Source: Afipia sp. (GTDB lineage: Bacteria; Pseudomonadota; Alphaproteobacteria; Rhizobiales; Xanthobacteraceae). From it: a DNA stretch of 41,513 bases. A model generated the notes under the pieces. That model did not search any database and was not told the DNA's origin. It worked only from the letters and a program-made list of their open reading frames with translations. Each line of letters starts with the position of its first letter. Position 1 is the first letter of the stretch. Position numbers and translations under genes: made by a program. Positions 7,016 through 26,175 of this stretch are shown here, in pieces. The stretch covers positions 1 to 41,513 of the forward strand of contig JAFVHU010000142.1 in the NCBI GenBank assembly GCA_017474385.1, written 5' to 3'.

Positions 7016-8332
7016 TCAAGAACGATTCAGGCTGAGAACAGCAGATACTCCTTGAGGGTATGCTGTTTTCGTTATCGTCCCTGCAGCAATCCCGACGGCA
7101 AGAACATAGAGCCAGCCCTGATAAAAATCGCTCAGATGCGAATTGAAAAGCGAACTCAGGATGTTCTGCACGACTGCCACTAAACCGATCCATGCGATGA
7201 TCCCTTCGCCACGAAACGTCAGCAGATGAACACTCCACATTGCGTAAAGCGCCAATACGCCAAGCAGCCCCCACTGAATAGCAAACAGAAGGGTTTGATT
7301 GTGAGGGTTGCCGATTGCATTCGCGGGTGAGCCGGTTCTCTTCGGGATGTCGCGGGTCAGCAGGGTTTTGGCTGATCCGGTCCCGTGACCGATGATGGGA
7401 GCCGTCTTGAAGAGTTCGATCGATTTATTCCATAGCTCCAGCCGCTGCCCCACAGACGTGGTTCCTGGCTCCTTTTGAGCGGCGCGATACTCGCTGAATG
7501 CTGCTGAAACTTTGTGCTGCAGGTTTGAAGAAACCGTCCAAAGCCCGGCGATAGCGACAAGGAGGGCGAGGCATGCGATCCAGAATTGTCTGCGATCAAG
7601 GTAGCGATATGCAAAAAACACCGCGAGGACGGGACAGTACACGAGGGCGGTCCGCGAAACGTTGACGAAGGCAAGATTGGCCAGCAACGCGGTAGCGACT
7701 ATCGCGGCCGAAAGTGCGATTGCCCGTTGCTGCCGCCGCAAGCCTTCGACCGCCACAGCGGCGAGTGCGAACGCGCAAAACGCCAGGCCCTGACTTTGGT
7801 CGATATAGTTTTTCACGGGGACGCCGGGCTGGTCGGACTTGTAGTGGATGGAAAGAGCCGGCCAGTACAGAGCAACCCACGAGTACAGCATCAAAACGAT
7901 GCAGGAGGCGACAAAAGCGTAGAAGACATATCTGCCGCGATCAGACTGGCTGAAGTAGTAGATCAGTATCGGGATTCCCAGAAGCTTCGCCATGGGGGTC
8001 AATCCGCGAAGCCTCTCAGGCCAGGACATGCCATCGGCCCAAAAGACGCCAAGCACGGCAACGAAACACAGGGCCAACGCCGCCAGGCTCGCAGGGTGCT
8101 TGAGTGAGCTAAAGAACGCAGCGGGTTTTACCGTGCTGAGAAAGCCGAGCAGAAAGATCAGCCCACAGGCCGATGTAAGGGATGTTGACCAGGGCAATCC
8201 GGCGGCCGCAATAATTGCGAAATTTTCCGTGCCTTTCTGCCGCGCGGCCTGTGCGAGTGGCCGATTTGGCCCGGTCCAAACGAAGAAGCCGAGCCAGACA
8301 TCGGCCAATTCTCGCTTTATTGCGGCGTACAT
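7016..8332 (-). CDS. O-antigen ligase/polymerase (WaaL/Wzy_C family)
   Basis: Polytopic membrane protein of 438 residues with about ten to twelve hydrophobic helices. The region from about residue 290 to 370 fits the Wzy_C/WaaL domain: RLELWNKSIELFKTAPIIGHG, then a periplasmic loop ending in NPHNQTLLFAIQWGLLG, where the conserved His of ligases lies. WaaL moves O-antigen from undecaprenyl diphosphate to lipid A-core in the periplasm. An ABC-exported O-antigen needs a ligase but no Wzy polymerase, so ligase is the better call given the wzm/wzt genes nearby. It is divergent from the LptF-like gene with a 119-base gap. Confidence 0.85.
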   Translation of the reverse strand: MYAAIKRELADVWLGFFVWTGPNRPLAQAARQKGTENFAIIAAAGLPWSTSLTSACGLIFLLGFLSTVKPAAFFSSLKHPASLAALALCFVAVLGVFWADGMSWPERLRGLTPMAKLLGIPILIYYFSQSDRGRYVFYAFVASCIVLMLYSWVALYWPALSIHYKSDQPGVPVKNYIDQSQGLAFCAFALAAVAVEGLRRQQRAIALSAAIVATALLANLAFVNVSRTALVYCPVLAVFFAYRYLDRRQFWIACLALLVAIAGLWTVSSNLQHKVSAAFSEYRAAQKEPGTTSVGQRLELWNKSIELFKTAPIIGHGTGSAKTLLTRDIPKRTGSPANAIGNPHNQTLLFAIQWGLLGVLALYAMWSVHLLTFRGEGIIAWIGLVAVVQNILSSLFNSHLSDFYQGWLYVLAVGIAAGTITKTAYPQGVSAVLSLNRS

Positions 8333-9606: not shown

Positions 9607-9792
9607 CTCTTTCGTCTCGAAAGCTCCCTCTCGAAATGGGTGCAAAAGTACTGATCTTGGCGAGAAGATTGTCTATACAGGGAGGAGTAGTTTGGGGCAG
9701 CGCCGTGGGGCGCCTTAAAATTGTTTGCGTTTTCAAGAAGTTATAGTCTTCAGAAACGCGACAGGTTTGTGAAATGAGTGAAAGTCGAGTTG

Positions 9793-10881
9793 ATGAAAAA
9801 GACGGCACTGATAACCGGGGTTACTGGCCAGGACGGGGCATACCTAGCGGAATTGCTGTTATCCAAAGGTTATTCTGTGCACGGGATCAAGCGACGTACG
9901 TCGCTTTTCAACACCGATCGTATCGATCATCTGTATCATGACCCTCACGACAAGGGTTACGACCTGACGCTCCATCATGGCGATTTGACCGATTCCTCGA
10001 GCCTTATTCGCATCGTTCAGGAAGTTCAGCCTGACGAGATCTACAATCTCGCGGCGCAGAGCCATGTTGCTGTGTCCTTCGAGGAGCCGGAGTATACGGC
10101 AAATTCCGACGCGCTCGGCCCGTTGCGTATTCTTGAAGCGATCCGCATTCTCGGACTTGAGAAAAAAACCCGATTCTATCAAGCCTCGACCTCGGAACTG
10201 TATGGGCTTGTTCAGGAAACACCTCAGAAGGAGACGACGCCCTTCTATCCTCGGTCGCCGTATGCGGTTGCGAAGCTATACGCATACTGGATTACGGTGA
10301 ACTATCGCGAGGCATACGGGCTGTTTGCCTGCAACGGCATCCTGTTCAATCATGAATCACCAATTCGCGGCGAGACATTCGTCACCAGAAAGATCACGCG
10401 CGCACTGGCTCGTATCAAACTTGGTCTTCAGGAGAAGGTTTATCTAGGGAACCTGAATGCGCTTCGCGATTGGGGGCATGCCCGCGATTATGTAGAGATG
10501 CAGTGGATGATGCTGCAGCAAGACGTACCGGAGGATTACGTCATAGCAACAGGCGAACAACACTCAGTTCGCGAATTCCTTGAAGTCGCTGCGAAGGAAG
10601 TCAACATCGCCATTCGCTGGGAAGGAGAGGGGGTCAATGAAAAGGGATACGATAGGGCCACGGGACAATGTATTGTCGAGGTCGACCCGCGCTACTTCCG
10701 GCCAGCCGAGGTCGAGACGCTTTTGGGAGATCCTGCGAAGGCGTATCGTCAACTCGGATGGTCACCGAAGACATCCTTTGCCGAATTGGTGACAGAGATG
10801 ATGCGAGAAGATTTGAAGGTTGCTCAGCGAGACGAGCTCGTGAAGCAGCATGGTTTTAAACATTTCAATTATAACGAATAA
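9793..10881 (+). CDS. gmd: GDP-mannose 4,6-dehydratase
   Basis: Gmd makes GDP-4-keto-6-deoxy-D-mannose from GDP-mannose, the branch point to GDP-fucose, GDP-D-rhamnose and perosamine. At 362 residues it follows the E. coli enzyme closely: NADP-binding [12 protein letters not shown] near the N-terminus, [10 protein letters not shown] catalytic segment, [12 protein letters not shown] with the Tyr/Lys pair, [19 protein letters not shown], and [17 protein letters not shown]. The frame extends to a GTG at 9778, but ATG 9793 gives the family N-terminus MKKTALITG. First of a run of plus-strand genes that continues through wzm/wzt. Confidence 0.96.
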
Positions 10882-10994
10882 ATTAGAGATGCATCACCGG
10901 CCACTACTACCCAAGCGGGCGGCCCTCAAAGACGTTTTTTTGATGTCTGATTGAGGTTGCTGCCGCTATAGTGGGTCCGGAATATGGGGATGCT

Positions 10995-12038
10995 GTGAAA
11001 AGAAAAATACTGGTGACCGGAGCCTCCGGCCAAGACGGCTTTTACCTTATCGATTTACTCCGCAAGCAGGGGTGCGTCGTACACGCTCAGTCGCGCCGCC
11101 AAACACATCCGAATCTTCATCAGGATGGGACGCATTGGCATGTCGGCGATCCGACCGATGGCGACTTTCTTGATTCGCTAATTGCGAGCGTGATGCCTGA
11201 CGAGATCTACAACTTTGCTGCAATCTCTCGACCAGTCTTGAGCTGGGGGTTGCCGCGGGAGACAGCCGAAGTGAATGCATTTTTGCCCCAGCAGATTTGC
11301 GAACTGTTGCTCAAGCACAAACCAGGCTGCCGGCTATTCCAGGCTTCATCGTCTGAGATTTTTGGAGACAGTGCCGACCGCGTCCAGGATGAGCAGACAT
11401 TGTGCGTTCCGAAATCTCCGTACGGTACTGCGAAGCTTTATGCCCATCGCATCATCGGTGCATATCGGACGCAATACGGTCTTCACGCTTCGACGGGGAT
11501 TTTGTTCAATCACGAAAGCCCGCAGCGTCCTCTTTCGTTTGTGTCGCAGAAAATTGCCTATGCTGCGGCCGCAATCTCGGTCGGCTTGACCCATACATCC
11601 GAGACTGACGAACGAGGTCAGCCGATACTGCGCGATGGAAAAATCGCATTGGGAGATCTGAGCGTTCGGCGTGATTTTGGCTTTGCAGGTGACTACGTGG
11701 AGGCGATGCGGTTAATCGTCCAACACCATACGGCGGATGACTACGTTATCGGCACTGGTGAAGACCACTCGATCGAAGAATTTTGCAACGAGGCATTCAG
11801 CTTGGTTGGCCACAAATGGACGGACCATGTCAGTGTCGATCCAGGTCTGCTGCGAAAAGTCGACAGTCACTATACGCACGCTAACGCTGCTAAGATTCGC
11901 TCCGTGCTGAACTGGCGGCCAAAGATCGGTTTTCGCGAACTTGTTTCCATAATGGTCAAGGCGCAGATCAATTTCATCCAGAGCAACGCGCCACTGAGCG
12001 GAGAGCCCATTATAGGTCACCGCAGCGTTGAATGCTGA
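10995..12038 (+). CDS. GDP-mannose 4,6-dehydratase paralog (NAD-sugar dehydratase)
   Basis: Extended SDR of 347 residues, clearly related to Gmd: TGASGQDGFYL nucleotide loop, MPDEIYNFAA, QASSSEIFG, SPYGTAKLYAH (Tyr/Lys pair kept) and [19 protein letters not shown]. It lacks the Gmd block around [13 protein letters not shown] and has an insertion near TSETDERGQPILRDGK, so its substrate may differ; it could act on another nucleotide sugar or make the next conversion after Gmd. Start chosen is GTG 10995, preceded by GGGGA; the frame opens at GTG 10971. It ends one base into the following GT4 start (TGATG). Confidence 0.8.
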   Translation: MKRKILVTGASGQDGFYLIDLLRKQGCVVHAQSRRQTHPNLHQDGTHWHVGDPTDGDFLDSLIASVMPDEIYNFAAISRPVLSWGLPRETAEVNAFLPQQICELLLKHKPGCRLFQASSSEIFGDSADRVQDEQTLCVPKSPYGTAKLYAHRIIGAYRTQYGLHASTGILFNHESPQRPLSFVSQKIAYAAAAISVGLTHTSETDERGQPILRDGKIALGDLSVRRDFGFAGDYVEAMRLIVQHHTADDYVIGTGEDHSIEEFCNEAFSLVGHKWTDHVSVDPGLLRKVDSHYTHANAAKIRSVLNWRPKIGFRELVSIMVKAQINFIQSNAPLSGEPIIGHRSVEC

Positions 12039-13171
12039 TGCGGGTTCTGCACGCCTACAAAGTTTATCTACCGGGCGCTTATGGCGGCATTCCCTCTGTC
12101 ATAGCGATGCTGGCAAGACTCTCGCGATCGGATTTTACAACAGAGATCCTTGTTGCACGGGAGTGCGGCTTCGCACGCAAATATAGTTTCGAAGGAGTGG
12201 AAGTTGAGGCCGTCTCATCCATCGGGATGGCTATGTCGACGCCGCTGGCTCCAGCTTACCCGTTCAGGTTCGTCAAGCGGGCAAAGGCCTCTGACATTGT
12301 CGTTCACCATGCTCCCTTTCCGTTAACGGATTTGGGAGTTTTGCTGATGCCAAAAGAGCCGGTTCTTATCGTTCACTGGCATGCGGAAGTGATCGGTCGT
12401 CTTCGTCTGATGCGACTGTTAAAGCCGTTCATCCGCCACTCACTGAAGCGCGCGGATACGATTGTGGTTTCCGATCAGGCTATCGTCGAGAAATCCCCCT
12501 TTTTGAAGGATTTTTCCGACAAGTGCGTCGTTATTCCTTATGGATGCGACGTAACGTACTGGGGGGAATTGAGTTCAGCGCAGCGAGAAGTCGTCGATAG
12601 CTTGCAAAAGCAACACCCGAGGCTTGTGGTCGCGGTCGGCAGGCTCGTCAGTTACAAGGGTTATGAGGTCTTTCTGCGCGCAATGCAGAACGTCGATGCT
12701 TACGCGGTTATAATTGGGGAAGGTCAGCTCAAGGCCGATCTCAACAGACTTGCGGCAGAACTCGACATTCTTGATCGGGTGAAATTTCTGGGCGTCCTTC
12801 ATCCGCACGAAGTTAAACAGTACATTCATGCTGCCAAGGTGCTGGCATTCCCCTCAGTGACGGAAGCCGAGGCGTTTGGGATCGTTCAACTGGAAGCGAT
12901 GGCTGCCGGCAAACCCGTCGTGAACACAAATCTTGCGACGGCAGTGCCGAACGTGGCGCGCGACGGCCGGGAGGGGTTGACCGTTCCGCCAAGCCAGCCG
13001 GTCGAATTTGCAGAAGCACTTCGCCGTTTGTTGGATCAGCCTGACTTCGCCGCCCGGCTAGGCGCAGCGGGAAAAGAACGCGCTTATGCTGAATTCAGCC
13101 AGCCGTTGTTTTTGTCGCGCATGCAAGACGTCTATAGAGACGCCGTTCGGCGACGCCGATCGACTCGGTGA
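12038..13171 (+). CDS. GT4-family glycosyltransferase
   Basis: Retaining GT-B glycosyltransferase of about 377 residues, cytoplasmic and membrane-associated. N-terminal loop LPGAYGGIPSVI is the acceptor-side glycine-rich loop; the C-terminal donor domain has VAVGRLVSYKGYEVFLRA and the EX7E motif in EAFGIVQLEAMA. The family resembles WbpZ/WbaZ-type mannosyl, rhamnosyl or fucosyl transferases, which fits the adjoining gmd genes, but donor and linkage cannot be read. ATG 12038 overlaps the upstream stop by one base; ATG 12032 is the alternative. It probably builds the O-antigen backbone or its adaptor. Confidence 0.9.
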   Translation: MRVLHAYKVYLPGAYGGIPSVIAMLARLSRSDFTTEILVARECGFARKYSFEGVEVEAVSSIGMAMSTPLAPAYPFRFVKRAKASDIVVHHAPFPLTDLGVLLMPKEPVLIVHWHAEVIGRLRLMRLLKPFIRHSLKRADTIVVSDQAIVEKSPFLKDFSDKCVVIPYGCDVTYWGELSSAQREVVDSLQKQHPRLVVAVGRLVSYKGYEVFLRAMQNVDAYAVIIGEGQLKADLNRLAAELDILDRVKFLGVLHPHEVKQYIHAAKVLAFPSVTEAEAFGIVQLEAMAAGKPVVNTNLATAVPNVARDGREGLTVPPSQPVEFAEALRRLLDQPDFAARLGAAGKERAYAEFSQPLFLSRMQDVYRDAVRRRRSTR

Positions 13172-13266
13172 GCGATGGCTGGCGAAGTGCTATAAACCGC
13201 GGAGCGCGACTCTGTAATGACCATATGTTCTTCAGCGGCTGAACAAATTTCTGAGATAAGTTGTTA

Positions 13267-14076
13267 ATGATGGCTGATCTCTTACGAAGAAGCGCACGGC
13301 TGCATCTCGCGATGCGCGATGTTCTCGATGGTGCGAAGCTATGGCCGTTATGGGGAAAGCTGGGCTGGAACGATATTCTGCAACGTTATCGGCGGTCGTT
13401 TCTCGGACCGTTCTGGCTCACTGTCAGCATGGCCGTGATGGTAATCGCGCTCGGTATTGTGTATTCGCAGATATTCAAGACTCCCATAAACGATTTTATG
13501 CCGTTCCTTTGTCTGGGTCTGCTTATCTGGAATTTCATCAATACGGTCCTGAACAATGCTGGCGCCTTGTTCACTGGTGCCGAATCCTACGTCAAGCAAA
13601 TCAGGCTGCCATACTCGATCTACCTGTATCGGTTCATTTGGAGCAATGTCATTGTCTTCGCCCACAATGCCGTCATCTATCTGGGCGTCATGATCTACTA
13701 CGAGGTCTGGCCGGAAACGTTTCTTTACGCCATTCCGGGGCTTTTGCTTCTGGTGCTTAACGGCGCTCTCGCTAGCCTGTACATTGGCATTATCTCGGCG
13801 AGGTTCCGCGATATTCCGCAGATCATCGTGAGCCTTACCCAGATTGCATTCTACGTCACTCCGATCATCTGGAAGCCTGAAATTCTTGGGTCGCGTTCCG
13901 CTATCCTGCTGTTCAATCCCTTTCATCATCTGATCGAGATTGTCCGCGGACCATTGTTGGGACAGTTGCCTTCGTTGGAGTCGTATACAGCGGTAGGCAT
14001 CATTACGGCGGTCAATCTGGCGGCCGCCGCCGCCTTCTTCATTCGCTTCCGGGCACGTATCTCATATTGGGTCTAG
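13267..14076 (+). CDS. wzm: Polysaccharide ABC transporter permease (Wzm)
   Basis: ABC-2 type membrane subunit of about 269 residues with six hydrophobic helices, exporting lipid-linked O-antigen across the inner membrane together with Wzt. Signature features are the amphipathic N-terminal segment with ILQRYRRSFLGPFWLT, then FKTPINDFMPFLCLGLLIWNF and the C-terminal YVTPIIWKPE and LFNPFHHLIEIVRGPLLG. The frame opens at TTG 13261; ATG 13267 has GAGAT 9 bases upstream. It lies 3 bases before wzt, the usual wzm-wzt pair. Confidence 0.93.
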   Translation: MMADLLRRSARLHLAMRDVLDGAKLWPLWGKLGWNDILQRYRRSFLGPFWLTVSMAVMVIALGIVYSQIFKTPINDFMPFLCLGLLIWNFINTVLNNAGALFTGAESYVKQIRLPYSIYLYRFIWSNVIVFAHNAVIYLGVMIYYEVWPETFLYAIPGLLLLVLNGALASLYIGIISARFRDIPQIIVSLTQIAFYVTPIIWKPEILGSRSAILLFNPFHHLIEIVRGPLLGQLPSLESYTAVGIITAVNLAAAAAFFIRFRARISYWV

Positions 14077-14079: not shown

Positions 14080-14838
14080 ATGTCAGAAACAGCTCTCGGC
14101 CTTGACAGGGTTTACGTCTCATTCCCGATTTATCAAACCGGATCGCGTTCCCTTAAAAAGAATCTGCTTTCACTTGGCTCCGCGGGGCGGATCGCCCGCG
14201 ATGCAAACGATCACATCACCATCGATGCACTGCGCAACATCTCGCTGAAGATCGAAACCGGCGACCGTTTGGCGCTGGTCGGTGCGAACGGCGCGGGGAA
14301 AACCACGCTGCTCCGCGTCATGGCGGGAATTTACGAACCTATTTCCGGAACCGTGACTGTCGAGGGCCGCATTTCGCCGATGTTCGACATCGGTCTTGGC
14401 ATGGACATGGATCTCAATGGGTATGATAACATTCGGCTGCGGGGCTTGTTGCTGGGCTTGCCCTCGGCACAGATTGAGAAGCTGATGTCAGAGATCGCCG
14501 AGTTCACCGAGCTCGGTGATTACCTCAACATGCCGGTGCGGACTTATTCGTCGGGCATGATCCTACGGTTGACGTTCTCGGTGGCAACAAGTTTTCGGCC
14601 GGAAATTCTGTTGATGGACGAATGGATTTTGGCTGGCGACGGGGGTTTTCTTGCCAAAGCGGAAGGGCGCATCAACGCCTTGATCAGCAATGCGAGCATT
14701 CTGGTGCTGGCTTCGCACAATCTCAAGGTTTGCCGCAAATGGTGCAACAAGGCGTTGTGGCTCAACAACGGAGAAATACAAGCGTTCGGATCGTCAGCGG
14801 ATGTCATCGATGCGTTTGAAGCGACTATGAAAGTCTGA
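14080..14838 (+). CDS. wzt: Polysaccharide ABC transporter ATPase (Wzt), short form
   Basis: Nucleotide-binding subunit that powers glycan export with Wzm. Walker A is GANGAGKTT at 68-76, the signature TYSSGM at 155-160, Walker B ILLMDE at 176-181, and the switch His213 in ASHN. It is only 252 residues and ends about 35 residues after the switch histidine. Wzt proteins of capped O-antigens (E. coli O9a type) run past 400 residues because of a C-terminal carbohydrate-binding domain, which is missing here. No frameshift is needed to explain the end, so this looks like a genuine short form. Confidence 0.93.
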
Positions 14839-14958
14839 TTAGCATAAGAATATGCAATGAATTGGGCCTGCGGTTGACTCAATAGTTGCTTTACGACAGA
14901 GATGGCCGGCTTCATCCTTGCTCATTTGTTGAGACGAAGCGGACGCATCAGTGACACA

Positions 14959-16181: not shown

Positions 16182-18773
16182 ATGACAACACTTCGGCGCC
16201 GTTCCGCGGCTGCACTGTTTTTTGCGGCCCTGAGCGGAGCAATGATCGCGTTTCTCATTTTCCCCGTTGACATGTTGCTCGGAGCGCAGCGCTATTGGAA
16301 CAGTATTGCAGGTGACAACGGTACCAGCTTGATTGGCTTCTACGCCCTCGCGCACGATAGATGGTCGTGGCCCGTTCTGTATACTCAACTGAGCAATTTT
16401 CCTGGCGGCGCGAATATCTATTACTCCGATGCGATACCGGTGCTCGCGGTTTTTTTTAAAGCGATTTACAAGGTTTCTGGCATTCTCTTTCCTTACTTTG
16501 GTCTTTGGCTTCTCCTTTCATACATTCTGATGGCAGTTGCTGCCTTTCTAACCTTGCGTGAATTGAGAGTACCCGTGTTGGCCAGTTGCTTGGCCTCACT
16601 TCTGTTTGTTTTGTTGCCGGAATTCATATTCCGCTACGTACACATCGGACTTGTTGCTCAGTTCTTCGTCGTTTTCGCTATCTTATTTTATCTCCGTTTC
16701 GTGAGGATATCGTCCCCATCTGAATTGATCTTGGTCTGCGTCGCTGGCGGGATGATCACATGGATCAACCCATACTTGCTTGCGATGAGTTCATCGTTGC
16801 TGTTGGCAGGCTTACTTGACGCCTGGTTCCGGGGCCGCATCACAATCAAGGTTGCGGCACTTTGCTGTGGTGTTTTACTAAGTTCCATTCTGTTCTGCGC
16901 CTTCTTTGCCGGGCTCATTGAAGGCGGGAGCCTACCTACGACAGGTGGCTTCGGCATCTACTCAATGAATCTGCTATCGCCGATTTTGCCCGAGCGAAGT
17001 CTGCTTTCCTTCGGACCTATATTCGCAGATAGCACTGGAGGCCAATACGAAGGTTTCAATTATCTCGGAGCTGGTGTGATTCTGCTTGTATTGATCGCAC
17101 TCTGTGCTGGCTGGCGGGATATTTCAGGTATCATCAAGGCCAGACCGTTCCTCTTTCTGATCTTGGTTCTTTTTATTCTGTTCTCACTTTCGAACGTAAT
17201 TTATGCCGGTCCTTATAAGCTGATTTCCATTCCTTTTCATAAGCTCCCCATCATTGATCGAATTACATCGACTTTCCGTTCTAGCGGACGTTTCTTCTGG
17301 CCTGTCGCATTCTGCATTCTGTTTGGATCCATCACTATTCTGGCCCGAAGATTTCGGCCGGCTGCAACATTAGCGCTTGTTTTGGCTGCTTTGGTTCTTC
17401 AGGCGTTGGATGTGTTTCCGCAAATGAAGGAAGTGGGTCGTGCAGCAAGTCCCAGGATTTCGAGCCAGTCGAGCTTCGAAGAATTAGTGAAGCTAAGTGA
17501 CGTTGTACTTTTCGAACCTGGTTTTCTGTGTAGCAATCGTCAGGATTTTCAGCCCATTCTTGATATTCAGCTAATCGCCGCTCGGTTGAACCGTCCCTTT
17601 GACGGCGCTTACATAAATAGAGGAGATCCGCTGTGCGTTGAGCGGGCGTTTCAATTTGAGCACCAGCCGTTCGGCGCAAATGCCGAGCGCCCATTGCTGA
17701 TTATGATGAAGCGATCGATATCTCCCGCTCGGGTTCTCGCAGCGACAAGCAGATTGAGGGATGCTGAATGTCGCGATTTGGATGTCGCTTTCGTTTGCGG
17801 CAAAGGAGAAATCGCGGCAAAGATCGCAAAGATGGGTACTTCCATAACTGCGCCTACAATACCCTTAGATCAAGTGCTCTCACCCAACATCAATGCGCGA
17901 CCTTTTCTTGGATATGGGTGGACACCAAACACGGACGGTGATTTTCGATGGGCTGAAGGTAAACATGTGAGTATAGCCGGCATACTTCCTCAACCTATTT
18001 GCCGCGACATTGAATTTGCGGTTGAATTGATTCCTCTTTCTTTCACGGATTATTTCACCGATCACGCCAGTGTTAACCTCAATGGTGGCCCCGAGATACC
18101 GATGCAATTGTCAGGACGCGGCCGTCAGACCATCAGGGCCGTGATTCCGCTCGCGCATTGCATCGATAAGCTTAATTTACAAATCAGGTTCGATAATCCA
18201 AAATCACCGTTTGAGATTGGATTGAATACCGATACCCGACGATTGACGTGGGGTGTCTACAACATCACCATCAAGTGCGCGGTCGGCGCGAAGGAGGGGC
18301 TTTCGACCATTCCTGCAGAATGTTTGGCAGAAATGAAAATGGGGAATCCCATCAAGTTTGGTGTTGGCGACGATGGCACCCGCTACCTTGCCACCGGCTG
18401 GCACTCCCCGGAGTCATGGGGGGTCTGGGGAAGCGAACTTCCAATTGTGAAAATGAATTTGAAAAAACGAGACTATTTGCTAACGGCGACCGTCGGGGCC
18501 TTTCTGCCTCCAGGTCACGAAAAGCGTGATTTCGATGTGAGCGTGAATGGTACTAAGGTGGCGACTTGGGGCTTTACAGCGGAAAAATCTGGTGGGAGCC
18601 GGATCGCGAATATTCCAGCGAGCGCTATTACTGAGGATATGCCAACCGAAATATCATTCGTGTCAACCACGCCGCTCATCAGCCCAAAATCTCTTGGACT
18701 GAACAGTGCTGATACGCGCAGGATGGGTATCGGGCTTCAGAACATTCTCATAGAGAATGTTGCGAGGCCTTAG
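16182..18773 (+). CDS. Large membrane protein, GT-C-like, with duplicated C-terminal beta domain
   Basis: An 863-residue protein. About residues 10-410 contain some ten to eleven membrane helices with a first periplasmic loop carrying GDNGTSLIGFYALAHDRW and FPGGANIYYSDAIPV, the layout of GT-C transferases (compare DUF6311-type proteins; name from memory, unverified). Residues 420-560 form a soluble region. Residues 575-697 and 735-858 look like two copies of one beta-sandwich domain, sharing ATGW/GYGW-type openings, a VNLNG/VSVNG strand, an SPxxxGLN turn and DTRR near the end. A periplasmic sugar transfer or glycan-modifying role is likely but unproven. Base composition is A+T-richer than the flanking genes, a sign of transfer. 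Confidence 0.75.
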   Translation: MTTLRRRSAAALFFAALSGAMIAFLIFPVDMLLGAQRYWNSIAGDNGTSLIGFYALAHDRWSWPVLYTQLSNFPGGANIYYSDAIPVLAVFFKAIYKVSGILFPYFGLWLLLSYILMAVAAFLTLRELRVPVLASCLASLLFVLLPEFIFRYVHIGLVAQFFVVFAILFYLRFVRISSPSELILVCVAGGMITWINPYLLAMSSSLLLAGLLDAWFRGRITIKVAALCCGVLLSSILFCAFFAGLIEGGSLPTTGGFGIYSMNLLSPILPERSLLSFGPIFADSTGGQYEGFNYLGAGVILLVLIALCAGWRDISGIIKARPFLFLILVLFILFSLSNVIYAGPYKLISIPFHKLPIIDRITSTFRSSGRFFWPVAFCILFGSITILARRFRPAATLALVLAALVLQALDVFPQMKEVGRAASPRISSQSSFEELVKLSDVVLFEPGFLCSNRQDFQPILDIQLIAARLNRPFDGAYINRGDPLCVERAFQFEHQPFGANAERPLLIMMKRSISPARVLAATSRLRDAECRDLDVAFVCGKGEIAAKIAKMGTSITAPTIPLDQVLSPNINARPFLGYGWTPNTDGDFRWAEGKHVSIAGILPQPICRDIEFAVELIPLSFTDYFTDHASVNLNGGPEIPMQLSGRGRQTIRAVIPLAHCIDKLNLQIRFDNPKSPFEIGLNTDTRRLTWGVYNITIKCAVGAKEGLSTIPAECLAEMKMGNPIKFGVGDDGTRYLATGWHSPESWGVWGSELPIVKMNLKKRDYLLTATVGAFLPPGHEKRDFDVSVNGTKVATWGFTAEKSGGSRIANIPASAITEDMPTEISFVSTTPLISPKSLGLNSADTRRMGIGLQNILIENVARP

Positions 18774-18805: not shown

Positions 18806-18839
18806 TTCATAACGACAGCCGCCACGGCAGCGTTATGAA
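18806..18839. terminator. Inverted repeat between convergent genes
   Basis: Arms TTCATAACG (18806-18814) and CGTTATGAA (18831-18839) are perfectly complementary, and an inner GCCG/CGGC pair (18818-18821 with 18825-18828) extends the stem. It lies between the converging ends of the 863-residue membrane protein and the 1608-residue protein and includes the stop codon of the latter. Placement suggests a bidirectional terminator, though no T-run follows. Confidence 0.5.
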
Positions 18840-21800
18840 GGAATGTCGATACAGTCGTGCTTGGCGCATTCGCTGGCTAGAAGAATCTCTTTTAATCGCT
18901 TGACGTTTTCTTCCCATGTCAGCCATCGAATCTTGCTAGAATCGGGGCAGCATCCGCTGTCGCGTAAATCCAACCATGACCGAATTGCTTCGGCCAGATC
19001 GGCACCCTCACTTCCCTTAAAGTAGGCAGCGAAGTCGCCAGCTACTTCACGAAACACCGGGATATCTCGCGCGATTATGGGGAGGCCGTGTCGGGCAGCT
19101 TCGATGAGCGGAAGTCCAAATCCTTCATCATCTGAGGCCGCGATTAGGCAGACGCATACGGCGTAAATCTTTTCAAGATACTCGTCGCTAACACTATCCA
19201 GCCAGATCAAGCGGCGACCACGTTCCGGATGGTTCTTCAATCGCTTTATAATGAGTGGAATGTTGCGTGCTTCATTGTCCGGCAAGCCCTTCCACCCCCT
19301 AGCACCGACAACTACCAATTTGACGTCTATGCCCCCTTGCCAAAGTTCCTCGAACGCATCCAAGGTCTGAAGATGACCCTTTCGAGGCTCGATCGTTCCA
19401 ACCATCAGAAAACATTTGCTGCTCGTGATGCTGTCGAGCGTTGTTGCGGCATCGTCAGGCAGTCCTAAGGTGGGCGAGGATGCATCGATGTCTCCGCCCA
19501 ACGGGCAGGAGACGACGGCAAGCTGGCTTGACGTCGATATTTTGTGAGAAATCAGCCATTTTTGGGTTTCGACCGCCACGGATTCCGATATGCAAACCAA
19601 GGCATCCGCGACACGCGCAATTGTCGATAGCCACTCGGCGTGAATCGGCTCAGCGAATGTTGGGAAGCGGTGAGGTAACGTTAAAGGAAGAATGTCGTAC
19701 ACGGTAAAGTAAATCCTTATACCTCGGGCGCGCCATTCATCATAAAGCCCCAACCTCGCCGCTCCAATGACTCCTGCTGTAAAGAAGTCGGCTCCTAGAA
19801 AGACATCGCCTTCGCCGACTTCGATGGGCTCGTCTGAGAGCATGTCTTGCGCGAGCCCAAAAATTCCAAGCATGTAGTTTCGTGCATAAAGATAGCGCCA
19901 TGTACCAAAGTCGTTGTGGAGCCAAATCGGTTCGATCCGATAACCCAGGGGCGGAGATTTCAGCAATTCTATCAATTGGGCTCTCACCACCCTTTGAATG
20001 CCAGTTCTGAAGTCGTTATTCACGATAACAGAGATGTCGACGAAGAGTCTCTTCGCGGCGCGCTTAATTGGCGTGTGTCGTCGCAATTCACGAGAGTGGT
20101 CGAGGATTTTCTCAGTATCTGAAGTTTGCAAGGTATTGCTTCGCGCGTATTCGACCAGCAAAGGGAAGCTGTCGACGATCCGGTTCGTACTCGCAAACTT
20201 CTCGATTGCATTGAAATATTTCTTTGCTACTAGGCCCGGCGCATAACACTCCTCAATTAGCTTCTGTCCCGCCTGGCCAACTTTGGAGCGAAGGCTCTCA
20301 TTGCTCCAAAGATCATTCAATGCGTTTGTAAGATCATCGTCGCTGAAGTTATCCTGCAAGCAAATAGTCGCTCTATGGGGCAACTCTGCCATCGATCCAT
20401 GCGCGTTAATGATTGTTGGAATGCCGTGCGCCAGACAGTCAAGTACGGCTGCCGAGGTTTCGCCTCGCGACTGCGCTCGCAATTGCACGGCTATATCGGC
20501 CGCCTGAAGGTAGTCTTCATAGGTTTCCGACGGCACGAATCCAGTGATTTGAACGCGCCCGCTTGTCAAGAGAGAGCGTATGTTTCTTTGCAATTCTTCG
20601 CCATAGGCTCCTTCGGAGATACCGCCCACGAAAACGAGATAGCACTCGGCGTTGTCTGCCAGGGACGACGCTAGCCATGCGTTGAGCAAGCGATCATTAA
20701 GTTTGGTGCTCTGGGCAAAACCAAATGAGCAAACCAAAAAGGCATTTTGCGGCAGACCAAGCTTGATGCGTGCAATCTCTCGTCCGGTAGCGCTATTGGG
20801 TGATTTGGCTAGCGGGAGAACCTTCCAGTCATTTGCATCGTAGGATGGATAAAATTCTGCGCAAAGTTTACGAGCGTGCTCGTTGTGGACAATGATGCCT
20901 TGGGCATTGTCAAGCACGGAGAAATTAGTTGGATAATTCCAGGTTGCTCCCAATCTGTTTTCCAAAGTCAAGAGTAATTTAATCGCTGAGTATCCATGTG
21001 AATGAACCAATCTGGTGGTCCAGAAGTTCGTCCAGCCACCGTGCGTTTGTAGGTACTCAACAACATTACCAAGATAAAAGTCATGAAGCACGACCACACC
21101 TGGAATCTTCTCCAGTAGAGGGAACATGTGACCGTGAAAATTAGAATTTCCAAAGTGATAAAGGATGCGATCATACCGATGCGCATTCCGTTCAAACCAA
21201 GCAACATCTCGCACAGAGCAATTGGCCAGGATCCAGTCGTCGCTCACGGCGCCTTGTGATGAAATAACGTCGATCTGGTAATATTCTGAAAGACTGGGGA
21301 GAAACTGTGCGCTGAAGTCAGCGATCCCGCTTTGTACTGACGGCAAAGGTGACAAATAAGCCAACCTCGGCTTGGAACTGTCCGTTTGCAGTTCGAGCGA
21401 ATCGGATTCACCGACACATTTGGTTGCATGAAGAAGCCTGTTATAGACAAGCTTCACATCATAGGGCTGTGGAATGTGTTCGACTTTACCACTCCACCGC
21501 GGAGGAGTGATCGCCGTCATAAACGGCCTCATCGGATCGGCTGCGGCCTGAAGCCGTTGCCTCAGAGGCGGCGCCAACACGAGTATTGCTTTTGTCAGAC
21601 CGAGGAGCCGGGGACGGGATCGGATAACGTCGAAAAGCCGGTTGACTGCGCGTCGGACTATACGACGCGGGCGCGAGTCCGACTTAAGCATAATCCACGC
21701 GCGCGCACCAGCTGTCATCCAGCGAGCGGTGCGGCGAATGCCTCGCATAGGAGCGGTCAACCGCCACGAGGAAGAGGTATAAATCGCTCGCATTCGCGCA

Positions 21801-23659
21801 TTACTTTCGATCAAATCTTCCTCCAGGGAGGCCGCCCACGAGACGTTTCTGGCCAAAGCCTGTGAGAGGTCCGCCGAGCGTGAATGCTCTGTAGCTAGCT
21901 CGCGGTCCCGCGCAGCGACCTTTTCCTCAAGCTGTTTTGCATCCGCTTCAAGCGCTTTTGCCCAAACGTCCGTTTTGGTGAGTTGGTCTCTCATCTGCGA
22001 CAACTCGGAATCGCGCTTGGTTAGAAAGTCATTTCTCAACGCAACTTCATTCGCTAGTGCCTTACGGGTAGTTGCAAGCGCACTCGTCGTCAGGCTCAGC
22101 TCTTCTTTCAGGGCAGTAGCTTCACTCTGGTATACCTGCAGAAGTTTTGAAAGCCTTGCAGCCTCTTCCCTTTGCGCCGCACCAGTTGTTTCAAGAGACG
22201 CGATATGACTATAAAGCTGGGAATACTTGTGTTGGAAAACTTGAACAATGCTTGAGACGCCTGCGGGCGCAGTAGTTGATTGAAGCCGCCCCTCATTCTT
22301 TGCTAGCGTTTTCTCCAGCTCTGCAAAGCTCCATTTTTCTTTCGGTAGTTGGAGCATTTTCCAAACGGAGCGCCTATAGGGTTCAGGCAGTGCATCAGGA
22401 TCAAGCCATGGCGATCGCGGGGCAGGGTTCGCTGCCTCGCCACAAACAACCTCCCTCAAGAAAATTAGGAAAGCGAGAAAGACATCGTTTGGCCAATCGA
22501 TGTCCTCGCGGCTTTTGGTGATTGCGCCATAGTCAATAAGGGATACTCGTCCTTCAGTGTCGATCAGGACATTCCAGGTGCGAACATCGTTGTGATAAAG
22601 ATCGTGTGCTTCAAGCTTTACAAGCTGTTGAAGAATGTCTCGCAAGACCTTGTGTGGATCATAGTCTGTCGCACATTTTGCCAGCTTTCGGTCGAGACTT
22701 TCGCCGGGTAGGCTTTCTCGCAAGAGCCATGCGTCTGTCGAATTCTTGCCGAATTCTATTAGCTTCGGAAGGTCCATACCTCTTGGTGGCGTACGCAGAA
22801 ACTCGATCTCGTTTCGCCATTCATTGTCGTTGTAGTGCCCGCGCACGGCATGATCGAGACGGAATTGCTTTATGAGCAACCCATTACCGAAGAAGAAGCG
22901 CCGCGTGCCTTCGTGTGTGTCACCGGCCGATTCGTTGGAGGCCGTCGTCCAGCGGTCGAATACTCCCGCGGCCTTGCCAAAAAACCAACACTCGTTGCTT
23001 GCGAAATAGAGAGGTCGCTGAATCTGAGATAGGTGGGTTTCGATCTGGGAGACTTCATGAACAAACGCGAAATCTTCGAGCTGTTGTCGAGGCGATGCGG
23101 GTTGCGATGGGCCCCAATATAGGGGCTCTTCCGCAAGACCGAGTTCGAATAAACATGCGAGTGTTTTTCGCGCCAATCCGCGATATATTTCTCTGACGTG
23201 TTCAAAACCTTTCTCGTAGATGAGGTGATGGAAAACGCTTAATCCAAGAACGAGGTCGCATTCGCCCATTTTAAGTTCTGCGAGGGTATCGTCGATGGTT
23301 TTTGTTTCGAAAATGCTTATGGCATCTCCGCGCTCGTCGGCGAGCGCCTGGCAAACGGCGATGTTTGCATTCAGAAAGTCAATCCCGTGCACTACAGCGC
23401 CGTGAGAGGCGAGGTGGTGGCTGAAATATCCTTGGGAGCAGCCTAGATCAAGCACGCGAATGGGCCGATTGAGCATCGCTTTGAGCGCATCGTGAGCGGC
23501 TAATATATGCGCAAGACGATCGTCGGACGATCGCGAGACTTTGATCGACAGTTCTGGATGTCCAAAAATGGGTTGATAGATTTCGGGGAGTTCGGCCACG
23601 AGAATCGGGAGAGGTTTGTTCTTTTTTTTCTCAGAATCAGGATGCATCGCTATCGTCAA
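18833..23659 (-). CDS. Methyltransferase-kinase-coiled coil-double GT4 fusion (WbdD/WbdA-like)
   Basis: A 1608-residue protein read as five parts. (1) About 40-230: class I SAM methyltransferase, motif LDLGCSQGYFS at 70-80, acidic HGIDF at 91-95. (2) About 250-450: kinase, catalytic HND at 356-358, Asn363 and DYG at 376-378. (3) About 475-628: long coiled coil. (4) After the junction motif SSSWRLTAPMRGIRR (629-643) and basic amphipathic helices to about 705 that may bind membrane, a GT4 domain at about 764-1160; its EX7E motif is changed to Glu1067 followed by Asp1074. (5) About 1205-1595: second GT4 domain, GTIEPRKGHLQ at 1421-1431 and a normal EX7E at Glu1512/Glu1520. Parts 1-3 match the order in E. 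coli O9a WbdD, the chain-capping methyltransferase-kinase and ruler; parts 4-5 match the paired GT4 domains of the polymerase WbdA. It is likely the O-antigen polymerase and its terminator in one chain; sugar and cap are unknown. Confidence 0.88.
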   Translation of the reverse strand: MTIAMHPDSEKKKNKPLPILVAELPEIYQPIFGHPELSIKVSRSSDDRLAHILAAHDALKAMLNRPIRVLDLGCSQGYFSHHLASHGAVVHGIDFLNANIAVCQALADERGDAISIFETKTIDDTLAELKMGECDLVLGLSVFHHLIYEKGFEHVREIYRGLARKTLACLFELGLAEEPLYWGPSQPASPRQQLEDFAFVHEVSQIETHLSQIQRPLYFASNECWFFGKAAGVFDRWTTASNESAGDTHEGTRRFFFGNGLLIKQFRLDHAVRGHYNDNEWRNEIEFLRTPPRGMDLPKLIEFGKNSTDAWLLRESLPGESLDRKLAKCATDYDPHKVLRDILQQLVKLEAHDLYHNDVRTWNVLIDTEGRVSLIDYGAITKSREDIDWPNDVFLAFLIFLREVVCGEAANPAPRSPWLDPDALPEPYRRSVWKMLQLPKEKWSFAELEKTLAKNEGRLQSTTAPAGVSSIVQVFQHKYSQLYSHIASLETTGAAQREEAARLSKLLQVYQSEATALKEELSLTTSALATTRKALANEVALRNDFLTKRDSELSQMRDQLTKTDVWAKALEADAKQLEEKVAARDRELATEHSRSADLSQALARNVSWAASLEEDLIESNARMRAIYTSSSWRLTAPMRGIRRTARWMTAGARAWIMLKSDSRPRRIVRRAVNRLFDVIRSRPRLLGLTKAILVLAPPLRQRLQAAADPMRPFMTAITPPRWSGKVEHIPQPYDVKLVYNRLLHATKCVGESDSLELQTDSSKPRLAYLSPLPSVQSGIADFSAQFLPSLSEYYQIDVISSQGAVSDDWILANCSVRDVAWFERNAHRYDRILYHFGNSNFHGHMFPLLEKIPGVVVLHDFYLGNVVEYLQTHGGWTNFWTTRLVHSHGYSAIKLLLTLENRLGATWNYPTNFSVLDNAQGIIVHNEHARKLCAEFYPSYDANDWKVLPLAKSPNSATGREIARIKLGLPQNAFLVCSFGFAQSTKLNDRLLNAWLASSLADNAECYLVFVGGISEGAYGEELQRNIRSLLTSGRVQITGFVPSETYEDYLQAADIAVQLRAQSRGETSAAVLDCLAHGIPTIINAHGSMAELPHRATICLQDNFSDDDLTNALNDLWSNESLRSKVGQAGQKLIEECYAPGLVAKKYFNAIEKFASTNRIVDSFPLLVEYARSNTLQTSDTEKILDHSRELRRHTPIKRAAKRLFVDISVIVNNDFRTGIQRVVRAQLIELLKSPPLGYRIEPIWLHNDFGTWRYLYARNYMLGIFGLAQDMLSDEPIEVGEGDVFLGADFFTAGVIGAARLGLYDEWRARGIRIYFTVYDILPLTLPHRFPTFAEPIHAEWLSTIARVADALVCISESVAVETQKWLISHKISTSSQLAVVSCPLGGDIDASSPTLGLPDDAATTLDSITSSKCFLMVGTIEPRKGHLQTLDAFEELWQGGIDVKLVVVGARGWKGLPDNEARNIPLIIKRLKNHPERGRRLIWLDSVSDEYLEKIYAVCVCLIAASDDEGFGLPLIEAARHGLPIIARDIPVFREVAGDFAAYFKGSEGADLAEAIRSWLDLRDSGCCPDSSKIRWLTWEENVKRLKEILLASECAKHDCIDIPS

Positions 23660-23712: not shown

Positions 23713-24951
23713 TCATCTCAAACTAATCGCCGGTTCAGGAAAGTTTCTGTAGAGTTGCCCGATTGCTTCTGCACTATGCTGCCAATTGAACCTTCGCGAT
23801 CGCGCTATTCTGAGTTCACGATCGCCCGCGCCATGCATGGGATTTTCGGATATGTCCTGGAGAGCGATAGTCCAGGCGGTAACATCCATCGGTGGCACGT
23901 TCCGAGATGTTCCTTCGGTAATTTCGTCCATTGACGTGCCGCTGCTATGAACTACCTCCGTGCCACACGCCAGCGCCTCAACGGCGGGCATTCCAAAGCC
24001 TTCATATATTGATGGAAATAGCAGCGCTCGCGCGCCTTCGTACAAACTGCGCAGTATCGGGTTGGATACCGTGCCCAGAAAGCGCAGGCTCCCATCGCTC
24101 ATCATGCGATCCGCGGAGGACGGCAATTTGAGATCGCCCCAGCCGGCCCCGCCGGCGATAATAAGCGGAATGCGGCGGCGTATCCGGGAGGAGAGTCCAG
24201 AATAAGCAGTTATGAGCGTGCGGAGGTTTTTCCGCGGCTCAAGGGTTCCAACCGCCAGAAAATAATAGCCCGGAACGACGTCAAAGGAAGCGATGTCTTT
24301 TTGCGTGATCTCCTGACCAAGTGGCCTGAAGATCGCGCTGGCGGCTGGAGGAGCAACGACAATTCGCTCACGGGGATACCCGTAGACAGTGGCGATCTCA
24401 GCCTTGCTGAATTCGGAGATCGTATGGACAAACGGTGCGCGCGAAACGACGGCTGGCAATCGTTCAAGCTCTTGCAAGCGTTGCTTGGGATGGGTTTCGG
24501 GAAACCTCACGAATGAAAGATCGTAAACTACAGGTAAAATCGGAATAGCGAGATCAACCGGGGGAAGATACTTAAAGGCGTGGAATAGACTGAGGTTCTT
24601 GAGCGTGTCGCCTTGCCGAAACCGCGCCATGCGCATATGTCGATAAATGCGTCGCGCGAGATCGATACGAGCAGCTGCCGCTCGAAGCGATTGTTGGACT
24701 TGTCGCGTCTTTGAACGAGTGGTGGGCGCAGCCAAGTACAGGTCAGTCTTGCCATAAGCACGATCGACTTGACGCAAGTGCTCAAGGCCGAACGGTTCCC
24801 ACGTTAGCTGGGAAAACCCCGAGAACTGAAAGTCCGGGTGGCTTGCCATCAGCGCCGTCAAAAGATGGAAGCAATAATTTCCCACTCCGGTCATCGGACC
24901 GTTCAGGAAATCCGTTTCAAGTCCGATCCGGACAGCTCGCCCAGAAGGCAT
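23713..24951 (-). CDS. GT4-family glycosyltransferase (mannosyltransferase-like)
   Basis: Retaining GT-B enzyme of about 412 residues. The N-terminal loop NGPMTGVGNYCFHLL, the mid region HAFKYLPP with VVYDLSFVRFPE, and the donor domain with VGTLEPRKNLRTLI and YEGFGMPAVEALACG (EX7E) place it with WbdB/WbdC/MtfB-type mannosyl or rhamnosyl transferases. Start: ATG 24951 with AAAGG upstream; TTG 24960 is also in frame. It lies 53 bases upstream of the 1608-residue protein in the same direction, so the two probably form a transcription unit in which this enzyme adds the first or adaptor residues before the fused polymerase acts. Confidence 0.9.
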   Translation of the reverse strand: MPSGRAVRIGLETDFLNGPMTGVGNYCFHLLTALMASHPDFQFSGFSQLTWEPFGLEHLRQVDRAYGKTDLYLAAPTTRSKTRQVQQSLRAAAARIDLARRIYRHMRMARFRQGDTLKNLSLFHAFKYLPPVDLAIPILPVVYDLSFVRFPETHPKQRLQELERLPAVVSRAPFVHTISEFSKAEIATVYGYPRERIVVAPPAASAIFRPLGQEITQKDIASFDVVPGYYFLAVGTLEPRKNLRTLITAYSGLSSRIRRRIPLIIAGGAGWGDLKLPSSADRMMSDGSLRFLGTVSNPILRSLYEGARALLFPSIYEGFGMPAVEALACGTEVVHSSGTSMDEITEGTSRNVPPMDVTAWTIALQDISENPMHGAGDRELRIARSRRFNWQHSAEAIGQLYRNFPEPAISLR

Positions 24952-25061
24952 TTCTATCAACCTTTCAACGCGCCGTGAAGCAGAAGAAAATACTCCATAA
25001 AACCACAGTCGGGAACAGACACGCGCGTGGAATCAAGTTTCGACGTTCAAGAAAAATTAGC

Positions 25062-26015
25062 CTAAGAATCCTTCGGCCCGAAATTGATCCGCTCGCGCTC
25101 GAAGACCGCCGGCTTTTCCCGTACCTGTCCATAAATCGCCAGAATGTATTCTCCGATCATCCCCATGAAGAACAGCTGAACGCCGCCGAAAAAGAACAGG
25201 GCGACGATAATGGTCATGATGCCGGGTTCGGCGATGTTGCCGCGCAACGCGAACCCCAGAATGAGATTGAAGAACGCGTAGCCGAGGCTAAGCAGCGACA
25301 GAATAAAGCCCGCGAATAGGCCGAGCCGCAGCGGTGCCGTCGTGAAGGAAACAAGGCCATTGAGACCCTGATCGAACAGCGCAGTCAGCCGGTTCTTCGA
25401 TAGGCCCTTGGCCCGCGCACGCCAGGTATAGGGCACGCCCACTGCCTTACCGCCGCACTCGAACGTCATCATCCGCATGAACGGATACGAGTCGCGCACC
25501 TGCCGCATCGCGTTGAGGACGCGTTTGTCGACAAGCTGGAAGTCGCCCACGCCCGGCGGCACCGAGACTTCGGCGAAGCGGGTCAACATCCGGTAATACA
25601 GCCCGCGCGTCTTGCGCATCAGCCAGCCTTCCTCGCGCACGGCGCGAATGCCGTAGACAATTTCGTAGCCCTGCTCCCAGAGTTTGACGAAGTCGGGCAG
25701 CAGTTCTGGAGGGTCTTGCAGATCGGCGGGCAGGAACAATAGCACCGCATCGCCGGAGGCCGTCATCGCGCCGTTGAACGTATTCTTGAGCGGTCCGAAA
25801 TTTCGCGCGTTAATGATCACCTTGACATCGTTGTCCTCGGCGGCGATGCGGCGCAAGATCTCGACCGTCGAGTCCGTCGAGGCGTTATCGCAGAAAATAT
25901 GCTCGCGCCGGTAGCCGGGTAGATGATCGCGAAAGACCTGCCGGATCGCCTCGTAGCAATCCTGCACGTTGAGTTCCTCGTTGTAGCAGGGCGTCACAAC
26001 TGAGATCGTTTTCAT
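25062..26015 (-). CDS. GT2 polyprenyl-phosphate sugar transferase (GtrB/DPM1-like)
   Basis: Transfers a sugar from a nucleotide donor to undecaprenyl phosphate on the cytoplasmic side. Of 317 residues, the first 215 are a GT-A domain: VVTPCYNEELNV, FCDNASTDST, NARNFGPLKNTFNGA and the metal site LPADLQDPPELLP. Two C-terminal membrane helices (about 230-255 and 265-290) follow, as in GtrB and ArnC. The sugar could be glucose, mannose or a modified sugar made by the neighbouring genes. Its ATG overlaps the opposing open frame of the GtrA-like gene, so the two face away from each other. Confidence 0.9.
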   Translation of the reverse strand: MKTISVVTPCYNEELNVQDCYEAIRQVFRDHLPGYRREHIFCDNASTDSTVEILRRIAAEDNDVKVIINARNFGPLKNTFNGAMTASGDAVLLFLPADLQDPPELLPDFVKLWEQGYEIVYGIRAVREEGWLMRKTRGLYYRMLTRFAEVSVPPGVGDFQLVDKRVLNAMRQVRDSYPFMRMMTFECGGKAVGVPYTWRARAKGLSKNRLTALFDQGLNGLVSFTTAPLRLGLFAGFILSLLSLGYAFFNLILGFALRGNIAEPGIMTIIVALFFFGGVQLFFMGMIGEYILAIYGQVREKPAVFERERINFGPKDS

Positions 26016-26175
26016 GGTCAGCCGCGTCCTCGGAACTCTTGCGCGGGCCCGTAGGCCGCAAATTGGGATATCTACCAGATGGGGTTATTTACAATGTGGC
26101 TGCGCTCTGGCACAGCTTTTCCTCACTCCGCTCTTCGCCAAAATGCGCGCGGGCGAACAGTTTGATGGAGATTCG

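What the first reader, a model, noticed from the sequence alone, without database searches (positions are those of the whole stretch)
18833..23659. Single-chain O-antigen terminator, ruler and polymerase
One 1608-residue protein joins a SAM methyltransferase, a kinase, about 150 residues of coiled coil and two GT4 domains. In E. coli O9a the first three form WbdD, which caps the chain and sets its length through the coiled coil, while the two GT4 domains belong to the separate polymerase WbdA. Joining them would fix the polymerase:terminator ratio at 1:1 and could give an unusually narrow chain-length range. Coil of about 150 residues would be roughly 20 nm if continuous.
Basis: partly seen in the sequence, partly recalled or inferred. 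Interest (0 to 1): 0.85.

Follow-up and report, generated by a model that had tools for sequence, protein, structure and literature searches.

The report
Fused O-antigen cap, ruler and polymerase
One bacterial protein joins the enzyme that caps a surface sugar chain, a long rod that can measure the chain, and the enzymes that build it, and its gene lies beside an export pump that lacks the usual part for recognising the cap, which may let chain-length control and export be studied apart.

Summary
ORF 18833-23659 (minus, 1608 aa) is a true WbdD (methyltransferase, kinase, long helix, amphipathic region) that continues in frame into two GT4 modules. The catalytic half matches solved E. coli WbdD at E 3.6e-103 with its catalytic residues kept. 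Only the second GT4 module is WbdA-like (40% to WbdA's C-terminal half); the first is absent from WbdA, and WbdA's N-terminal module is absent here. Related polymerases have three modules; here WbdD takes the place of the first.

Single-chain terminator-ruler-polymerases are published (K. pneumoniae O12 and O7), O7 even with a methyltransferase-kinase, but of another kinase type and with GT2 modules. The format is known; I did not find this combination elsewhere.

More surprising, and outside the given coordinates: the cluster's Wzt has no cap-reading module and none was found in the 84%-complete genome; the transporter resembles the cap-independent O2a type. In 11 of 12 other WbdD loci Wzt has that module (the twelfth shows no Wzt). 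Best reading: WbdD-type capping and length control, fused to a probably D-rhamnose-based polymerase, with export not gated by the cap. The predicted narrow chain length is untested.

The parts
18833..23659 (-). Fused WbdD-GT4-GT4 gene, 1608 aa
22970..23659 (-). SAM methyltransferase domain, residues 1-230 (Y28, H144, H145, R215 = WbdD Y16, H132, H133, R203)
22280..22969 (-). Kinase domain, residues 231-460 (E280, H356, D358, W362, N363, D376 kept; N242, Y276, N357 replace WbdD Y230, R270, D350)
21782..22258 (-). Predicted coiled coil (ruler), residues 468-626
21392..21781 (-). Membrane-proximal region and linker, residues 627-756: SxSWRxT motif and cationic amphipathic stretch 663-680, as in WbdD 591-680
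20165..21391 (-). GT4 module 1, residues 757-1165; 42-47% identical to modules of five other polymerases (four alphaproteobacterial), no match in E. coli WbdA
18857..20068 (-). GT4 module 2, residues 1198-1601; homologue of the C-terminal half of WbdA (40%)
23713..24960 (-). WbdB-like adaptor GT4 (29% to E. coli WbdB), directly upstream
12032..13171 (+). WbdC-like adaptor GT4 (28% to E. coli WbdC)
13261..14076 (+). Wzm permease; only NCBIfam match is the galactan transporter permease, below its cut-off
14080..14838 (+). Wzt ATPase, 252 aa, no carbohydrate-binding module
9778..10881 (+). gmd, GDP-mannose 4,6-dehydratase
10971..12038 (+). Second dehydratase/reductase of the GMD/RMD kind (gmd model below cut-off), probably the reductase to GDP-D-rhamnose (inferred)
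7016..8332 (-). O-antigen ligase-like membrane protein (Wzy_C)

Best explanation
A single-chain chain-length machine for an ABC-transporter-exported O-antigen. (1) WbdC-like and WbdB-like enzymes make an adaptor on a lipid-linked primer. (2) The two C-terminal GT4 modules, held at the membrane by the cationic amphipathic region, extend the chain, most likely with GDP-D-rhamnose and/or GDP-mannose. (3) When the free end is long enough to reach the N-terminal domains at the far end of the 468-626 coil, the kinase phosphorylates the terminal sugar and the methyltransferase methylates the phosphate, which stops growth. (4) Because this Wzt lacks the cap-reading module, the cap acts as a stop signal but is probably not the export ticket; holding polymerase and terminator in one chain may stand in for that lost checkpoint. 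Shown by sequence: the modules, their order, kept catalytic residues, the Wzt without a CBM. Inferred: the sugar, the cap, the oligomeric state, the ruler action, and export without cap reading.
For: WbdD match (residues 15-469 to crystal sequences; blastp 15-685 to E. coli HS WbdD; fold). Of 17 functional or motif positions tabulated, 14 are identical in all 15 WbdDs compared, window included; the other three (230, 270, 350) vary. Coil and amphipathic region; kinase bundle to SxSW motif is 186 residues, inside the 132-294 range of the 8 others measurable (motif not found in 2 of 11 rows). Module 2 is WbdA-C; the module 1+2 pair is shared with the 4 of 4 three-module polymerases examined, and gmd is annotated beside 3 of the 3 annotated relatives fetched. 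gmd and a second enzyme of that kind lie in the window. Wzt is 252 aa; no Wzt_C family and no match to the E. coli CBM itself in the genome, and no other O-antigen-type Wzt; the same Pfam model finds the CBM in 9 of 9 control Wzts. The 11 nearest Wzt relatives in the family also stop 1-7 codons after the match; best NCBIfam models are the galactan transporter pair, below cut-off. An O2a transporter can export a terminated O3a glycan in a recombinant (PMC10629545, passage; PMC11231755, passage).
Against: No activity, glycan or length data. The genome is 84% complete, so a separate cap-reading protein could lie in the missing part; the CBM works in trans in a tested system (PMC9445017, section 4). 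PMC11231755 says that all terminated examples known have the CBM, so this would be an exception. WbdD Y230, whose change to Phe abolished activity in vitro (PMC3482155), is Asn here; it is His in 10 of the other 14, so it probably tracks the acceptor, but Asn occurs in the window alone. The fusion is seen once: no second copy in the collections searched. The coil model is of low to moderate confidence and the GT half did not fold with confidence (mean pLDDT 48.9).
Confidence: 0.62

Rival explanations
1. Cap-gated export as in E. coli O9a: termination and export are still coupled, but the cap is read by a separate or unrelated protein not recognised here.
For: PMC11231755 states that in all terminated examples known Wzt carries a CBM (passage); the CBM can work in trans (PMC9445017); the genome is incomplete.
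Against: No Wzt_C match at E up to 1 in the genome (in the same search 4 of 14 control genomes rang, 2 over the cut-off), and no match to the E. coli CBM (an empty answer without its own positive control); the Wzt is a full-length member of a CBM-less group common in the family (43 of 198 genomes at E 1e-45, own included; 11 of 11 loci checked lack a C-terminal extension).
Confidence: 0.2
2. The WbdD half has lost or changed its kinase activity and serves mainly as a membrane scaffold and spacer; length is set by the balance of polymerisation and export, as in the O2a type.
For: Acceptor-contact positions 230, 270 and 350 differ from O9a; the transporter resembles the O2a type.
Against: All metal, ATP and catalytic residues tabulated are kept, and such residues usually drift when a domain is unused; position 350 is Asn in 9 other WbdDs and position 270 varies widely.
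Confidence: 0.13
3. Assembly or annotation artefact: two genes joined in the draft assembly, or two proteins made from internal starts.
For: Single occurrence in a 162-contig draft; internal start codons with ribosome-site-like matches exist at residues 616 (TTG, GGAGG upstream), 714, 766 and 769. Beyond residue 511 the WbdD homology rests on one blastp alignment with the low-complexity filter off; phmmer's stretch ends at 511.
Against: 4827 bases open in one frame; same GC and codon usage in both halves; the SxSW motif that ends the WbdD coil is present at 629, and polymerase homology begins near 757-762; the join lies where related polymerases carry their first module.
Confidence: 0.05

Closest known systems
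E. coli O9/O9a (K. pneumoniae O3) WbdD + WbdA
   Same: Same methyltransferase, kinase, coil and amphipathic region in the same order; second GT4 is WbdA-C; WbdB- and WbdC-like adaptors present
   Different: There terminator and polymerase are two proteins and Wzt reads the cap; here one chain, other first GT module, acceptor-contact residues changed, Wzt without CBM
K. pneumoniae O7 ORF6 (PMC11231755)
   Same: One chain: methyltransferase-kinase, coil, two polymerising GT modules; methyl-phosphate cap shown there
   Different: O7 kinase is AmiN-like with an extra Ig-like domain, and its GT modules are GT2; here a WbdD-type kinase and GT4 modules. The paper says a CBM is on Wzt in all terminated examples
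K. pneumoniae O12 WbbB
   Same: Terminator, coil ruler and polymerase in one chain (as described in PMC11231755)
   Different: Terminator is a Kdo transferase, not a methyltransferase-kinase
Citrobacter youngae O1/O2 cluster (PMC11127046)
   Same: gmd/rmd, WbdB- and WbdC-like adaptors, WbdD-like terminator, multi-module polymerase, a three-component side-chain system
   Different: WbdD and polymerase separate; Wzt has a predicted CBM
K. pneumoniae O2a Wzm-Wzt
   Same: CBM-less transporter; the galactan transporter models are the best NCBIfam matches for this Wzm and Wzt (below cut-off)
   Different: In O2a growth and export are obligatorily coupled and length does not depend on a coil terminator

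Membership tests
WbdD chain terminator (O9a type) | Sequence and fold match to WbdD over methyltransferase and kinase | tested here: met
WbdD chain terminator (O9a type) | Catalytic residues Y16, H132, H133, R203, E274, D351, N356, D369 kept | tested here: met
   residue roles from PMC3482155
WbdD chain terminator (O9a type) | Acceptor-contact residues Y230, R270 | tested here: not met
   N242 and Y276; both positions also differ in 10 of the other 14, so they mark the O9a acceptor rather than the wider family
WbdD chain terminator (O9a type) | Coiled coil followed by a membrane-binding amphipathic region | tested here: met
   by prediction only, coil at low to moderate confidence:
WbdD chain terminator (O9a type) | Trimeric coil that sets chain length | not testable with these tools
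   known for E. coli from PMC5082667 (passages)
WbdD chain terminator (O9a type) | Partner Wzt carries a cap-reading CBM | tested here: not met
WbdD chain terminator (O9a type) | Methyl-phosphate transfer | not testable with these tools
   needs biochemistry
WbdA polymerase | C-terminal GT4 module | tested here: met
   40% over 1198-1601, E 1e-82
WbdA polymerase | N-terminal GT4 module | tested here: not met
   module 2 matches WbdA-N only weakly (26%, E 9e-10) and module 1 not at all; best in the genome is the WbdB-like gene at 25%
Single-chain terminator-ruler-polymerase (O12/O7 format) | Terminator at the N-terminus, coil, polymerising GT modules at the C-terminus of one chain | tested here: met
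   that the GT modules polymerise is inferred from their relatives
O7 ORF6 type terminator | AmiN-like kinase plus Ig-like domain | tested here: not met
   kinase is WbdD-type; no Ig-like domain in Pfam; the O7 sequence itself was not fetched

The most novel reading that the evidence does not exclude
A natural hybrid of the two export strategies: O9a-type termination and ruler working with a cap-blind O2a-like transporter, the covalent fusion of terminator to polymerase replacing the CBM checkpoint by keeping the chain in the complex until it is capped. The cap would then be a pure stop signal, never read.
Probability: 0.4. Interest if true: 0.72.

Novelty: new variant of a known kind. Interest (0 to 1): 0.55.

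Why it matters
In the studied capped systems, making the cap, measuring the chain and licensing export cannot be separated, because a chain without a cap is not exported. A native system with a WbdD terminator but a transporter without the cap reader would let the ruler be tested alone. It also fixes the polymerase:terminator ratio; in O9a, occupancy of the recruitment site and coil length are the two stated determinants of size (PMC11231755), so coil length becomes the single variable. The fusion point also suggests how these machines evolve: a WbdD stands where related polymerases carry their first GT module.

Tried and rejected
Rejected: two WbdA modules (only one is). Rejected: O7-type kinase (WbdD-type instead). 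Rejected: a Wzt that lost its CBM by recent decay; its 11 nearest relatives checked are equally short. Rejected as evidence: the AlphaFold2 model of the GT half, mean pLDDT 48.9. Weak: the first periodicity test of the coil (P 0.063). Led nowhere: single-sequence scan of genome contigs (0 of 4 candidates), viral contigs (0 of 30), a class-wide search round G795 (0 of 321; the tool notes that an empty answer without a positive control shows nothing, as it also does).

Not counted or not examined: L045 runs off its contig end after 669 codons, so whether it is fused is unknown. L043 has no coil and no Wzt within 10 kb. Cronobacter and Apirhabdus WbdD reading frames are broken and were left out of every alignment. 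Further relatives of the GT pair at 32-34% identity (H13-H18) were not fetched. Pfam was run on 7 of the 11 CBM-type Wzts's loci; L046, L047, L048 and L054 rest on the alignment.

Full report
The frame. The interval holds one open frame of 1608 codons on the minus strand; the plus-strand frame has many stops. It is not explained by chance: residues 15-469 match WbdD crystal sequences at E 3.6e-103, a blastp match to E. coli HS WbdD (low-complexity filter off) runs from 15 to 685 at 32% identity and E 4e-103, and residues 1198-1601 match HS WbdA's C-terminal half at 40% and E 1e-82 (HS cluster). phmmer's WbdD stretch ends earlier, at 511. GC and codon usage do not change at the junction.

The terminator half. 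Against HS WbdD the identity is 40% over the catalytic part. Roles of residues were taken from PMC3482155 (passages; sections 7 and 9). Methyltransferase Y16, H132, H133, R203 and kinase E274, D351, W355, N356, D369 are all present, and all of these are identical in the 15 WbdDs compared: the window, 12 loci, E. coli HS and a Klebsiella plasmid copy. Three positions differ from O9a: Y230 is N242, R270 is Y276, D350 is N357. Position 230 is Tyr in the 4 enterobacterial sequences, His in 10 others and Asn only in the window; position 350 is Asn in 10 of 15, window included. Of the 10 His sequences 8 lie beside a gmd 53-54% identical to the window's. I read this as a change of acceptor sugar, probably to D-rhamnose. 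That is inference, and Y230F was inactive in O9a.

The ruler. AlphaFold2 with 13 sequences gives catalytic domains mostly at pLDDT 76-95 and helices 468-563 and 574-626 at 44-78; Foldseek places the model on WbdD (4ax8, E 2.3e-43). The 143-residue run without Pro or Gly was not reached in 5000 shuffles. Heptad enrichment is present but modest (P 0.015; a cruder test gave 0.063, and 0.32 for the E. coli WbdD coil). From the kinase bundle to the conserved SxSW motif the window has 186 residues, against 132-294 in 8 others. A cationic amphipathic stretch follows in both the window (663-680, moment 0.63) and E. coli (619-636, moment 0.63), above the 99th percentile of the window protein, 0.51. The review PMC5082667 (passages) gives E. 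coli WbdD as a trimer holding its active sites about 20 nm from the membrane; the oligomeric state here is untested.

The polymerase half. In 4 of 4 of these the pair is preceded by a module like WbdA's N-terminal one (35-38% identity), giving three modules. In the window that place is taken by WbdD, and no WbdA-N module was found elsewhere in the genome beyond 25% to the WbdB-like gene. A Pseudomonas plasmid protein has WbdA-N plus module 1 only. In 6 of 6 module-1 sequences a SRGExSA stretch stands where the usual EX7E motif would be (EX7E is recalled). The best solved relatives by profile are Tll1590 and then GDP-mannose-dependent mannosyltransferases. The GT half did not model with confidence.

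The surroundings. WbdC-like and WbdB-like adaptors, gmd and a second enzyme of that kind, Wzm and Wzt and a ligase-like protein make an ABC-transporter-dependent O-antigen locus. Wzt is 252 aa, stops at 14838, and the next gene opens at 14902 or later. No Wzt_C match was found in the whole genome at E up to 1, while the same search rang in 4 of 14 control genomes, 2 over the cut-off. The E. coli CBM itself finds nothing there (no positive control of its own). As a control, Pfam's Wzt_C is over its cut-off in 9 of 9 other Wzts scanned (E. coli HS, seven of the WbdD loci, one Pseudomonas plasmid) and not reported for the window's. The only O-antigen-type Wzt in the genome is this one, 41% to HS Wzt and E 6e-49; the next by E-value is 31%, E 4e-22. 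Forty-three of 198 genomes of the family, own included, hold a match at E 1e-45, and all 11 loci checked end 1-7 codons after the match. NCBIfam's best models are the galactan transporter pair, below their cut-offs.

How common. The scan of genome contigs with a three-row alignment gave 12 WbdD loci from 57 candidates: seven Xanthomonas, two Klebsiella, one each of Stenotrophomonas, Niveibacterium and an alphaproteobacterial MAG. It works through exact short patterns, so distant relatives are missed. Eleven of 12 end in a stop without a GT module; one (L045) runs off its contig. Eleven of 12 have a Wzt of 427-461 aa aligning through the CBM part of HS Wzt; the twelfth (L043) shows no Wzt. In whole genomes WbdD is rare: besides the own genome, one partial match (methyltransferase part only) in the 397 of the order, none in the 398 of the phylum and none in the 385 of the class (each number includes the own genome; searches used a two-row model at E 1e-25, thirteen rows at E 1e-40). 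In plasmids 0 of 151 matching records cover 80% of the fused protein in one place. In the tree the window's WbdD pairs with L043 at weak support, 82/75, with a long-branch warning.

Comparison with print. PMC11231755 (introduction part 1, sections 10, 11 part 1, 13 part 1, and passages) describes O12 WbbB and O7 ORF6 as single chains with terminator, coil and polymerase modules (in O7 one further GT is a separate protein), and states that all terminated examples have a CBM on Wzt, while the O1/O2 transporter lacks one and can export the O3a antigen in a recombinant. PMC10629545 (passages) says that recombinant glycan was terminated, and that systems without the cap-CBM mechanism typically show wide length ranges. 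PMC9445017 (passages; section 4) says CBM-truncated transporters fail but are restored in trans. PMC11127046 (passages; section 5) describes a Citrobacter locus with unfused counterparts. A search for WbdD listed 37 papers; I read parts of 5 of these, and no title or abstract start in that listing mentions a WbdD-GT4 fusion. The full texts of the rest were not read, and most subscription papers are not held.

Verdict. A new variant of a known kind. The single-chain format is published; the combination of a true WbdD with GT4 modules, in a locus whose transporter lacks the cap reader, was not found elsewhere in my searches. The strongest consequence is that this locus could separate chain-length control from export licensing.

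Noticed in passing
window 26014-26592 (+), 25062-26015 (-), 16182-18773 (+): GtrA-like protein, polyisoprenyl-phosphate-type GT2 and a DUF6311 membrane protein: looks like a three-component system adding a side-chain sugar in the periplasm.
   Followed up: partly
window 31535-32305 (-), 14902-16059 (+), 26601-28375 (-), 28326-29240 (-): Glucose-1-phosphate cytidylyltransferase, CDP-glucose 4,6-dehydratase, a split transketolase and an epimerase-like gene: a CDP-sugar pathway, possibly to a two-carbon-branched sugar; product unknown.
   Followed up: no
window 29532-31399 (+): Sulfotransferase-like gene next to an APH-family kinase-like gene inside the sugar cluster.
   Followed up: no
window 37322-41143 (+): YqaJ-like and ERF recombination genes followed by a large serine recombinase: edge of a mobile element beside the cluster.
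   Followed up: no
L043 9827-11527: Alphaproteobacterial MAG with a WbdD-like methyltransferase-kinase that has no coil and no recognised O-antigen partner genes within 10 kb, near a 3145-codon repeat-rich frame.
   Followed up: partly
L044, L046-L050, L054: Xanthomonas WbdDs: in the three measured (L044, L049, L050) the span from kinase bundle to SxSW motif is 259-294 residues, longer than in E. coli (155) or the window (186): natural candidates for ruler-length variants.
   Followed up: partly
L036 7935-10465; L037 5935-8300: Plasmid-borne O9-type clusters of Cronobacter and Apirhabdus in which the WbdD region falls in two overlapping frames; described only.
   Followed up: no
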